A DNA stretch of 64,000 nucleotides from Parvibaculum sp. (GTDB taxonomy: Bacteria; Pseudomonadota; Alphaproteobacteria; Parvibaculales; Parvibaculaceae): assembly GCF_019635935.1 (NCBI RefSeq), contig NZ_JAHBYN010000001.1, positions 806,001 through 870,000 of the forward strand. Direction: 5' to 3'. Under the pieces are notes generated by a model. That model did no database searches. It saw nothing but the letters and a program-made list of their open reading frames with translations, and was not told where the DNA came from. The translations under genes were made by a program, and so were the position numbers. Shown one piece after another: positions 27,715 to 29,315 of this stretch; within the stretch, counting starts at the first letter, position 1; each line of letters begins with the position of its first letter.

Positions 27715-28611
27715 CTAGATCGCGACGTCGGCCTTGATCGCGGAGTGAGGCGAGTAGCCCTCCACCTCGAAATCCTCAATCCGATAGTCGTCGATGCTCG
27801 CCGCGTGACGGGTGAGCCTCATCCGAGGGAATGGGCGCGGCTCGCGTGCGAGTTGCTCGCGCGCCTGATCAAGATGGTTGAGGTACAGGTGGATGTCGCC
27901 GCCAACCCAAATCAACTCCCCGGGGCGCAGGTTGGCCTGCTGAGCGAGCATAAGTTGGAGAGCGGCAGCCCCGACGTAATTGAATGCAGCCCCAAGCAGA
28001 AGATCGACCGATCTCTGAAACAATAGGCAATTGAGCCGCCCGTCGGACGTCACATGGTACTGGTAAACCATGTGGCACGGTGGCAGCGCCATCGCGCCGA
28101 GATCGGCGACGTTCCAGCCATGGAAAAGCATGCGGCGACTCGCGGGGTTCTCACGAACCGTCCGAATGAGATCCGCGATCTGGTCGTATTCGCGACCATC
28201 AGCGCCCAACCACCGCCGCCACTGCCTCCCGTACACGGGTCCGAGCTCACCCCAGCGGGCGGCAAAAGCATCGTCATCGAGGATTCGCCGCTCGAACTCA
28301 TCTTGGGAGACGTTCTCGCCCGTCTCGCGTCGATAAGCGGCAAGCGGCCAGTCGGTCCAGATACGGACGTTCTCGCGGATCAGCGGCTGAATGTTGGTAC
28401 CACCGGTGAGGAACCAGAGCATCTCCTTTACGGCGGTCTTCCAGTAGACCCGCTTGGTCGTAAGGATTGGAGCGGTCCCGTCCGCTAGGTTAAAGCGGAC
28501 CATGGCACCGAAGATCGAGCGCGTACCAACGCCCGTACGGTCGATGCGCTCGTCTCCCCGTTCAAGCACATGCTCGAGAAGATCGAGATACTGATATTCT
28601 GGGTGCCGCAT
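27715..28611 (-). CDS. thyA: Thymidylate synthase carried by the mobile element (replacement thyA)
   Basis: A complete 298-residue thymidylate synthase that makes dTMP from dUMP and methylene-tetrahydrofolate. Visible are the N-terminal RTGVGTRSIFG, the catalytic Cys in LPPCHMVYQYH (about residue 178), the phosphate-binding SRRMLFHGWN, the dUMP-site AAFNYVGA and the C-terminal DIHLYLNHLDQA and YSPHSAIKADVAI. It has an extra block near residues 90-120 absent from short ThyA proteins and from the broken chromosomal copy, so it is a divergent homologue, not a duplicate. The ATG at 28611 has GGAG eight bases upstream. It is the first gene of the recombinase operon and sits about 180 bases inside the junction. 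Confidence 0.93.
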   Translation of the reverse strand: MRHPEYQYLDLLEHVLERGDERIDRTGVGTRSIFGAMVRFNLADGTAPILTTKRVYWKTAVKEMLWFLTGGTNIQPLIRENVRIWTDWPLAAYRRETGENVSQDEFERRILDDDAFAARWGELGPVYGRQWRRWLGADGREYDQIADLIRTVRENPASRRMLFHGWNVADLGAMALPPCHMVYQYHVTSDGRLNCLLFQRSVDLLLGAAFNYVGAAALQLMLAQQANLRPGELIWVGGDIHLYLNHLDQAREQLAREPRPFPRMRLTRHAASIDDYRIEDFEVEGYSPHSAIKADVAI

Positions 28612-28714
28612 TCGCACTTCTCCGACCTGAGCGTAAAAAAGGGCTCAAATATGGGACACCATAGCCCTGATGGGGAACATAAATCGAACGCAGCATGTCT
28701 TTCATTCATCGACA

Positions 28715-28738
28715 ATAGCTATATCAATATATAACTAT
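28715..28738. promoter_or_regulatory. AT-rich palindrome upstream of the element thyA, near the right end
   Basis: Two arms, ATAGCTATAT and ATATAACTAT, are inverted repeats (9 of 10 pairs) around a 4-base centre CAAT. The palindrome lies in an unusually AT-rich stretch (about 28700-28770) between the insertion junction and the first element gene. It could be a recombinase-binding site at the element end or an operator for the thyA-recombinase operon. Two tandem near-copies of ATTATTTC/ATTTATTTC follow at about 28753-28769. Confidence 0.45.
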
Positions 28739-28748
28739 ATGAAATACA

Positions 28749-29315
28749 TCACATTATTTCATTTATTTCGGGCGCTATGCCAGAAAAGAAGCCCACGCCG
28801 AGGAAAATATCGGCCGAACGCTGGTAGAGCTGGCAGGAGAGCTTGCCGTCCGCGACATAGAACTGGAACAGGCAATGGCAGGGCGGCAGCGCCATGTGAT
28901 CGACATCGGCGACATTCCACGCCGAAACGATCAGCCGCCGCGAATCCGGGTTGCTGCGAATCTGTTCCAGCAGATTCTTGATCTGGTCGATCCTTGTGCC
29001 GTCCGGCGCCGGCCAGGAGCGCCACTGATGTCCGTAGACGGGGCCGAGATCGCCCTTCGCGTCCGCCCAATCGTCCCAGATGCTGACGCCATTGGCTTTG
29101 AGGTAAGCGATGTTGGTGTCGCCGGCGAGAAACCAGAGCAACTCATGCACGATCGATTTCAGATGCAGCTTCTTCGTCGTCACCAGCGGAAATCCGTCGG
29201 CGAGATCGAAACGCATCTGATGGCCGAATATGCTGCGCGTGCCCGTGCCGGTGCGGTCGGTCTTGGTCACGCCCGTGTCGCGCGCAAGGCGCATGAGGTC
29301 GAGATACTGTTTCAT
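28749..29315 (-). pseudogene. thyA: Chromosomal thymidylate synthase, truncated by the element insertion
   Basis: The first 174 codons of a normal short-type (E. coli-like) thymidylate synthase, from MKQYLDLMRLARDTG to QRSADIFLGV, including the catalytic Cys (about residue 146). At 28794 the reading frame leaves the family. The expected Pro-Phe-Asn and the whole C-terminal third (second dUMP contacts, folate-site residues and C-terminus) are replaced by 14 foreign residues (GFFSGIAPEINEIM) and a stop at 28749. A product could not be active. The start at 29315 has AGGA upstream. The gene points away from the dipeptidase gene. Confidence 0.93.

What the first reader, a model, noticed from the sequence alone, without database searches (positions are those of the whole stretch)
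27715..29315. A mobile element has broken the chromosomal thyA and brought a complete replacement thyA
The resident thymidylate synthase gene is intact for 174 codons and then breaks at 28788-28794, exactly before the conserved Pro-Phe-Asn of the dUMP site (Asn177 in E. coli numbering). On the other side of the break lies a whole, divergent thymidylate synthase gene, followed at once by a recombinase operon. An element that inserts into an important metabolic gene and supplies its own substitute avoids killing or weakening its host and makes its loss costly. I know of elements that restore the end of the gene they enter. A full divergent paralogue carried at the border as a replacement for a split thyA is not something I can match to a described system.
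Basis: partly seen in the sequence, partly recalled or inferred. Interest (0 to 1): 0.92.

Follow-up and report, generated by a model that had tools for sequence, protein, structure and literature searches.

The report
Element breaks thyA, brings a replacement
In this bacterium a 57,000-letter, likely mobile piece of DNA sits inside the gene for the enzyme that makes the DNA letter T, cut in the codons of its active site, and it carries a complete, different version of the same gene that would take over the job, so that losing the element would likely starve the cell of T.

Summary
Confirmed and extended. The missing third of thyA lies 56.9 kb left of the break. The two parts are separated by an element with sharp ends: a 6-bp core on each side and TTTTCYGG inverted termini. 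Joined in a script, the flanks give an intact 264-aa ThyA, 97.7% identical to the closest of 30 intact relatives. No ThyX was found, so the element's ThyA is the only intact thymidylate synthase seen in this genome. The same codon is broken, with a complete thyA at the same border, in all three elements of this recombinase family that I could place: here, a Parvibaculum MAG and Sphingomonas Leaf412. Of 120 listed truncated ThyAs, 45 leave ThyA at this codon. In another class, an element with recombinases of no detectable similarity splits thyA at a different active-site codon and also carries a complete thyA. The strategy has a precedent: an island splits tmk in Pseudomonas putida KT2440 and carries the essential replacement (PMC10653934). 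This is a new variant: another gene, other recombinases, other classes. Excision, expression and addiction are untested.

The parts
28794..29315 (-). 5' part of the resident thyA, 174 codons
   Evidence: PF00303 positions 1-178; 3' part at G000:C1:777622-777891 outside the window
28788..28793 (-). 6-bp core at the 5' border, GGCTTC in the sense of thyA; the other border has CCCTTC (G000:C1:777886-777891)
   Evidence: G021 has CCCTTC/CCCTTC, Leaf412 AGCTAT/GCCTTC
1..28787 (.). the part of the 56,896-bp element that lies in the window (whole element G000:C1:777892-834787)
28771..28787 (-). element terminus TTTTCTGGCATAGCGCC; TTTTCYGG forms an inverted pair with ...CCGGAAAA at the other end
   Evidence: same in G021 and Leaf412
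28749..28787 (-). element-encoded tail of the broken ThyA reading frame (FSGIAPEINEIM and stop)
   Evidence: FSG-like tails in most of 45 truncated ThyAs
27715..28617 (-). complete carried thyA, 300 aa, starting 170 bp inside the border and in the same direction as the broken gene
25037..27712 (-). rec1, 889-891 aa; no Pfam or NCBIfam match; invariant Arg, nearly invariant His and invariant Tyr near its end suggest, by eye, a tyrosine recombinase without the first Arg
   Evidence: structure search uninformative
22995..25043 (-). rec2, 682 aa, tyrosine recombinase-like
   Evidence: PF00589 E 6.6e-4, below its cut-off; phrog_1 integrase E 7.9e-9
22444..22998 (-). 184-aa small partner protein (candidate counterpart of GinD/Srap/TnpC)
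   Evidence: position and a helical, charged C-terminus by eye; only a weak TetR_C_11 match, E 0.19
22145..22447 (-). 100-aa protein, 61% identical in Leaf412, not found in the G021 locus
20681..22144 (-). rec3, 487 aa, tyrosine recombinase-like
   Evidence: PF13495 E 2.9e-6 and PF02899 over their cut-offs, PF00589 E 0.0013 below it
12555..18269 (-). cargo: three genes named by eye as a CzcA/CzcB/CzcC-type metal efflux set
   Evidence: not scanned against families
9557..11347 (-). cargo: copper-resistance multicopper oxidase
   Evidence: TIGR01480 over cut-off
5226..7679 (-). cargo: copper/heavy-metal P-type ATPase
   Evidence: TIGR01511 and TIGR01525 over cut-off

Best explanation
A 56.9-kb, likely mobile element sits inside the host thyA, cut at the codons of the active-site Pro-Phe-Asn, and carries at its border a complete, divergent thyA that is the only intact thymidylate synthase gene found in this genome and that likely replaces the one it broke. 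By anatomy it goes with the multi-recombinase elements that exchange 6-bp cores (GInt, SE and Tn554 kind): three recombinase-like proteins and a small partner would join a circular or copied form to a 6-bp core in thyA, leaving the target's hexamer at one border and a carried hexamer at the other. The core lies in codons that a host can hardly change, so the target would nearly always be there; the price, a dead thyA, is paid in advance by the carried gene. Here the carried gene starts 170 bp behind the break in the direction of the broken gene, so it would be read from the host's thyA promoter or from one in the spacer, and the recombinase genes follow it closely. Since the resident copy is in two pieces, loss of the element without exact repair would leave the cell without thymidylate synthase. 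Shown: borders, the empty site in relatives, no ThyX found, recurrence. Inferred: movement, expression, enzyme activity, addiction.
For: Three PF00303 matches in the genome: complete gene, 5' part, 3' part. Flanks joined at the core give 264 open codons, 97.7% identical to ThyA of relative G018; flanks abut in 25 of 30 intact relatives. No ThyX in 6 of 6 genomes searched, control rings in 6 of 14. Same borders and a complete thyA at the 5' border in G021 (recombinases 80-87% identical, carried ThyA 91%) and Leaf412. 12 of 118 compared relatives of the carried ThyA share an exact contig length with a rec1 relative. 45 of 120 listed truncated ThyAs break at this codon. An independent case in G1019. 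Precedent with experiments: tmk island (PMC10653934).
Against: The element was found rarely: rec1 in 1 of 385 genomes of the class (plus one weak match) and 1 of 295 Sphingomonas (plus one weak match); split thyA in 1 of 114 class genomes with PF00303 and in none of three other draws. Carried ThyAs cluster only weakly on a tree, so a single carried lineage is not shown. The small protein and rec1 have no family match. No promoter above chance in the spacer. In Leaf412 the recombinases are about 50 kb from the carried thyA. Movement, expression and activity untested.
Confidence: 0.84

Rival explanations
1. The island entered a thyA that was already expendable: the divergent thyA had come earlier as ordinary cargo or by gene transfer, and its place at the border is accidental.
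For: Element-type ThyAs mix with ordinary chromosomal ThyAs on the tree; plasmid records often carry a thyA.
Against: A complete thyA stands right inside the same border in 3 of 3 placed elements, and a complete thyA lies in the G1019 insert; contig-length coincidences.
Confidence: 0.09
2. The two thyA parts still make a working split enzyme and the carried gene is a spare.
For: Both parts are open and undecayed.
Against: The 3' part has lost the host start; the break parts the Cys region from the Asn of the dUMP site (roles recalled); for tmk the same hypothesis was tested and rejected (PMC10653934, Discussion).
Confidence: 0.03
3. The break is an assembly error or an old decay without an element border.
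For: G021 is a fragmented MAG whose 3' part lies on another contig.
Against: Sharp borders with the same termini in three assemblies; in G000 and Leaf412 both parts lie on one contig.
Confidence: 0.01
4. A phage or conjugative element with an ordinary integrase, the recombinase set being cargo.
For: Many islands use one integrase (recalled). Conjugation genes were not searched for family by family.
Against: Rec1 had no match in plasmid or phage records or viral contigs; the same recombinase set occurs in all three placed elements.
Confidence: 0.03

Closest known systems
Genomic islands in tmk carrying a dNMPK (Pseudomonas putida KT2440 PP_1964; PMC10653934: abstract, passages, whole Discussion read)
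   Same: A large island splits an essential gene of dTMP metabolism and carries the gene that does the job; two tyrosine recombinases and a TetR-like protein among four shared genes; found in several genera.
   Different: Target tmk, not thyA; the replacement is a T4-like dNMPK, not a homologue of the same family; Pseudomonas, Acinetobacter, Psychrobacter and Halomonas there. Essentiality was tested there, not here. No sequence comparison made here.
GInt (ginABCD; PMC5385486: parts 1-3 of 6 read)
   Same: Three recombinase-like genes plus a small protein, one of the three lacking the first Arg, large cargo with metal resistance, imperfect repeats and 6-nt exchange, high site specificity.
   Different: Gene order differs, an extra 100-aa gene, recombinases at either end; reported targets are an ABC transporter start, the end of ssb and the end of a ribonucleotide reductase gene; the authors state that insertion probably does not fully inactivate the target. 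'thyA' and 'thymidylate' do not occur in its main text.
SE, strand-biased circularizing integrative elements (PMC10214605: passages read)
   Same: Target hexamer at one border, carried hexamer (footprint) at the other; small partner with TetR-like start; a large recombinase-like protein without the full motif.
   Different: SEs are reported in Gammaproteobacteria only, with 13-19 bp inverted repeats; here the shared terminus is 8 bp. 'thyA' does not occur in its text.
Tn552-II with target-gene-like tgl (PMC12486829: abstract and passages read)
   Same: A tnpABC element carries a homologue of the gene it enters; the authors suggest that it may rescue the function; hexamer-like att brought in (7 bp).
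   Different: The target is a YolD-like or plasmid gene, not thyA; rescue is a suggestion there.

Membership tests
GInt | operon of three tyrosine recombinases and one small protein | tested here: inconclusive
   Three large genes and two small ones in one run; rec2 and rec3 match integrase models weakly to moderately, rec1 only by residues read by eye; order differs from ginABCD
GInt | recombinase operon at one end, cargo, short AT-rich other end | tested here: inconclusive
   Recombinases at one end in the window, at the other in Leaf412, with thyA always at the 5'-thyA border; AT content of the ends not measured
GInt | hybrid imperfect repeats from a 6-nt exchange | tested here: met
   hexamers at both borders of three elements
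GInt | sequence similarity to GinABCD | not tested
   no gin sequence was fetched
GInt | excision as a circle | not testable with these tools
   needs cells
SE | synteny intA-tfp-intB-srap | tested here: not met
   gene order rec1 (889-891 aa), rec2 (682), 184 aa, 100 aa, rec3 (487); identity of the parts with SE proteins not tested
SE | 6-bp footprint at one border, target hexamer at the other | tested here: inconclusive
   pairs GGCTTC/CCCTTC, CCCTTC/CCCTTC, AGCTAT/GCCTTC fit; donors unknown
SE | 13-19 bp imperfect inverted repeats at the ends | tested here: inconclusive
   8 bp TTTTCYGG shared by both ends
tmk-type self-replacing island | splits an essential gene of dTMP metabolism and carries a gene for the same activity | tested here: met
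   split thyA with a complete thyA by sequence; activity not tested
tmk-type self-replacing island | carried gene shown to be essential | not testable with these tools
   needs a deletion; absence of another thyA and of ThyX supports it

The most novel reading that the evidence does not exclude
Multi-recombinase elements have repeatedly made the active-site codons of thyA their landing site and made the host depend on a carried thyA: one recombinase family does it at Pro-Phe-Asn across alphaproteobacteria, another of no detectable similarity does it just behind the Cys stretch in another class, and with the tmk islands they form a general class of self-replacing, host-captivating elements aimed at dTMP synthesis, with dozens of split thyA genes lying unnoticed in public data as 'truncated' thymidylate synthases.
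Probability: 0.62. Interest if true: 0.84.

Novelty: new variant of a known kind. Interest (0 to 1): 0.76.

Why it matters
It shows how a large island can use an indispensable, highly conserved gene as its address without killing the host, and why such an island would be hard to lose. Two recombinase sets without detectable similarity, each with a carried thyA inside thyA, plus the known tmk islands, suggest convergent use of one pathway. It also warns annotators: a truncated thyA may mark the border of an island, and the working gene may be the foreign one. Why essential genes serve as integration sites becomes directly testable here.

Tried and rejected
Assembly artefact and old decay: rejected. 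Phage or plasmid origin: rec1 had no match in 72,556 plasmid or 50,697 phage records, and none of 23 pattern matches in viral contigs was a relative; rec2 matched 25 plasmid records, all under 60% identity and at most 48% of its length, as generic integrases or unnamed proteins. Plasmid-borne thyA genes in Rhizobium and Bosea records carry no relative of the recombinases and were dropped. Fold of rec1: mean pLDDT 69.5 and no PDB match at E <= 0.001. Tree of 122 ThyAs: 15 rows labelled as carried need 12 changes against a shuffled mean of 14.4, 10 of 500 shuffles as low; it is a quick tree, and unlabelled rows may also be carried. Attempts to reach Rhizobium-like genomes by guess led to groups without splits. 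The recombinases and small protein of G1019 showed no similarity to those of the window in four comparisons, so the two are not claimed as one family. Promoter scan of the border: one weak match against 0.8 expected.

Full report
THE OBSERVATION. On the - strand, resident thyA is intact from 29315 to 28794 (174 codons) and stops at 28788-28793; a complete thymidylate synthase lies at 27715-28617 and a run of recombinase genes follows. A search of the window's own genome with PF00303 gave three matches: the complete gene, the 5' part (positions 1-178) and a 3' part (positions 174-266) at G000:C1:777622-777900. The window is G000:C1:806001-870000, so the element runs from 777892 to 834787, 56,896 bp. 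G000 is of the same genus as G021, which holds the contig titled Parvibaculum sp..

THE BORDERS. In the sense of thyA the 5' border reads GTG|GGCTTC|TTTTCTGGCATAGCGCC and the 3' border GGGGGTGACCGGAAAA|CCCTTC|AACATC. CCCTTC are the Pro-Phe codons. Joined at the core, the host flanks give 264 codons without a stop. Against 30 uninterrupted relatives, ThyA identity reaches 97.7% (G018, locus L036), whose flanks are 91-92% identical in DNA. The two flanks abut base to base in 25 of 30; in 3 the 5' flank stops one base short, in 1 ten bases short, and in 1 the 3' flank was not found. The entry in this lineage is therefore likely younger than its parting from G018 (G018 itself has two nearly complete thyA matches). 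G+C is 61.6% for the element and 64.1 and 65.9% for the flanks.

THE ONLY INTACT GENE. G000 (100% complete) has no other PF00303 match and no ThyX (PF02511) match; ThyX was absent from 6 of 6 genomes in that search, and the control rang in 6 of 14.

THE SAME THING ELSEWHERE. Rec1 as a single-protein query found two loci in one scan of genome contigs, a search that finds close relatives only. Locus L006 (Parvibaculum MAG, the same contig as one of G021) has the 5' part of thyA, a complete thyA 91% identical to ours, and the recombinases (80, 81 and 87% identical; the 184-aa protein 80%; the 100-aa protein not found); its 3' part stands on another contig behind an identical terminus. Locus L007, Sphingomonas sp. 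Leaf412 (G420), looked at first like an exception without thyA, but its genome has the three matches again: 5' part, complete gene, and 3' part 62 kb away on the same contig. Its borders read GCG|AGCTAT|TTTTCCGGCGTAGCGCC and ACACCGGAAAA|GCCTTC|AATTTC. Leaf412's broken resident is itself close to the carried type (82% identical over the 5' part), so the element enters both ThyA types. Its complete gene again stands next to the 5' part in the same direction, but the recombinases lie at the far end, with a RecD2-like helicase gene before rec3. Thus thyA at the border is the constant; the thyA-recombinase run of the window is not.

HOW OFTEN. Order: 33 of 40 genomes have a complete resident-type thyA, 2 (G000, G021) are split with a second complete gene, 3 have partial matches only, 2 have none. 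Class draw: rec1 in 1 of 385 (G000), plus a weak match in G270; the split in 1 of 114 genomes with PF00303, G000 itself, out of 385. Sphingomonas: rec1 in 1 of 295, plus one weak match. Three further draws showed no such split, with PF00303 in 23 of 23, 34 of 43 and 26 of 61 genomes (the 23 are among the 61). In 5.8 billion proteins rec1 gave 79 hits, its own copy included; the others are 45-80% identical, a few over part of the length, and source names include Methylobacterium, Sphingomonas, Bosea and Burkholderiales (only the 7,994 best candidates were scored). Of 118 relatives of the carried ThyA whose contig lengths I compared (120 listed of 2,005), 12 have a longest contig of exactly the length of that of a rec1 relative; two of these are genome-sized Methylobacterium contigs. 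This is evidence for one contig, not for neighbourhood in those two.

A FOOTPRINT IN TRUNCATED PROTEINS. A profile of the three broken 5' parts, cut to 130 residues so that full-length ThyA is too long to be a candidate, matched 7,998 proteins, 120 of them listed. By a pattern on the sequences, 45 of the 120 leave ThyA exactly at this codon, 74 run through it and 1 was not parsed. The first two residues after the break are Pro-Phe in 26 of 45 and otherwise varied; the next three are FSG in 25, FSD in 6, FSA in 4, LSG in 3 and others in 7. A conserved TTTTCYGG-like terminus behind a varying hexamer would encode that. Names among the 45 include Phreatobacter cathodiphilus, Pseudorhizobium pelagicum and Rhizobium etli IE4771 (31 member sequences). 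That these genomes carry a second thyA is inference; one of the 45 (P0229) shares its contig length with a rec1 relative.

A SECOND CASE, WITHOUT DETECTABLE KINSHIP. A phylum draw gave PF00303 matches in 323 of 398 genomes; ten genomes have exactly three matches (G000, G1043, G1072, G916, G993, G1019, G1022, G1118, G1123, G1144), but their partial matches fell below the printed list. I read one, G1019, chosen because it is a single contig; its class is another one (kinship 'same phylum'). Its resident thyA (33% identical to the window's over 160 residues) is split between a 5' part at C1:1010881-1011376 and a 3' part from 1031605, five residues behind the Cys of a Cys-Met-His stretch that corresponds to the Pro-Cys-His of the window's ThyA, and about 23 codons before the Pro-Phe-Asn site. 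Both borders show ATACAT, followed inwards by AATATAAGACTG and AATAGAAGACAG, an inverted pair (read). The 20-kb insert has an operon on the - strand: a 403-aa XerC/D-like recombinase, a 997-aa protein with a recombinase-like C-terminus, a 682-aa and a 163-aa protein without a family match and, its start overlapping the previous stop by four bases, a complete 274-aa thymidylate synthase; CzcA-type and CDF metal exporters are cargo. Recombinases and small protein show no detectable similarity to those of the window. There the carried gene lies inside the insert and faces the other way. The other eight genomes are untested, and ThyX was not searched in G1019.

HOW IT LIKELY WORKS. Shown: sharp borders with a 6-bp core, an inverted terminus, the carried gene at one border, no other synthase found. 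From papers: in SEs the target hexamer stays at one border and a carried hexamer comes to the other (PMC10214605, passages); GInts exchange 6 nt and need three recombinases and a small protein (PMC5385486, parts 1-3 of 6). The hexamer pairs here fit. Inferred: the recombinase set does the exchange; thyA is chosen because its active-site DNA can hardly drift; the carried gene, in line behind the broken 5' part, is read from the host's thyA promoter or from the spacer (a promoter scan found nothing above chance); cells that lose the element without exact repair lack thymidylate synthase. Because the carried gene of G1019 faces the other way, host read-through is not a general rule.

CARGO. The element carries copper and heavy-metal resistance (P-type ATPase, copper-resistance oxidase, CusA/CzcA-type pump), an IS1182-family transposase and QatA and QatC of a Qat anti-phage system, each over NCBIfam cut-offs; further genes were named by eye only.

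COMPARISON. The strategy has a precedent with experiments: a 65-kb island splits tmk in P. putida KT2440 and its dNMPK is the sole essential thymidylate kinase; such islands occur in several genera with the same four genes, two of them tyrosine recombinases and one TetR-like (PMC10653934; abstract, passages and whole Discussion). [quoted passage not shown] That its four genes may be an SE core is my inference, untested. Tn552-II carries a target-gene-like gene that its authors suggest may rescue the target (PMC12486829, abstract and passages). For thyA I saw no such description in the listings (open-licence PubMed Central papers; most subscription papers are not held). Hence: new variant of a known kind. 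SE membership fails on gene order; GInt membership stays open.

LIMITS. No cells, no reads, no expression. Rec1's kinship with tyrosine recombinases rests on residues read by eye in an alignment of 15; its predicted structure gave no match. The recurrence rests on three placed elements of one family and one of another. The roles of the Cys and Asn residues are recalled and come from no call.

Noticed in passing
G000:C1:778001-778086 (L004 8001-8086); L040 344-429; L046 12590-12691: A large hairpin stands about 90-200 bp inside the 3'-thyA end of all three placed elements: arms of 36 nt (94 and 92% complementary) in G000 and G021, whose stem bases differ on both sides while pairing is kept, and 42 nt (76%) in Leaf412. 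It could be a single-strand or recombinase landmark; function unknown.
   Followed up: partly
L077/L132 (G1019:C1:1010881-1031963): A recombinase operon whose last gene is a complete thyA splits the resident thyA at another codon in another class.
   Followed up: yes
phylum draw: G1043, G1072, G916, G993, G1022, G1118, G1123, G1144: Eight more genomes with exactly three thymidylate synthase matches, the pattern of G000 and G1019; the match ranges were not printed.
   Followed up: no
L004 12950-18103 (G000:C1:782950-788103): Genes of a Qat anti-phage defence system in the element; QatA and QatC over their NCBIfam cut-offs, the neighbours not scanned.
   Followed up: partly
L046 8489-10792 (Leaf412): A RecD2-like helicase gene stands inside the recombinase run, before rec3; it is absent there in the window.
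   Followed up: no
P0153 and P0157: Two nearly identical thymidylate synthases listed for one Bosea sp. BIWAKO-01 contig of 6.8 Mb, perhaps another doubled thyA.
   Followed up: no
G018: The closest intact relative has a second nearly complete PF00303 match (positions 9-266) on another contig; a duplicate, an element or contamination.
   Followed up: no
31338-31673: ARAGORN reports a tmRNA gene (tmRNA*) with tag ANDNYAEARLAA about 2 kb beyond the start of thyA.
   Followed up: no
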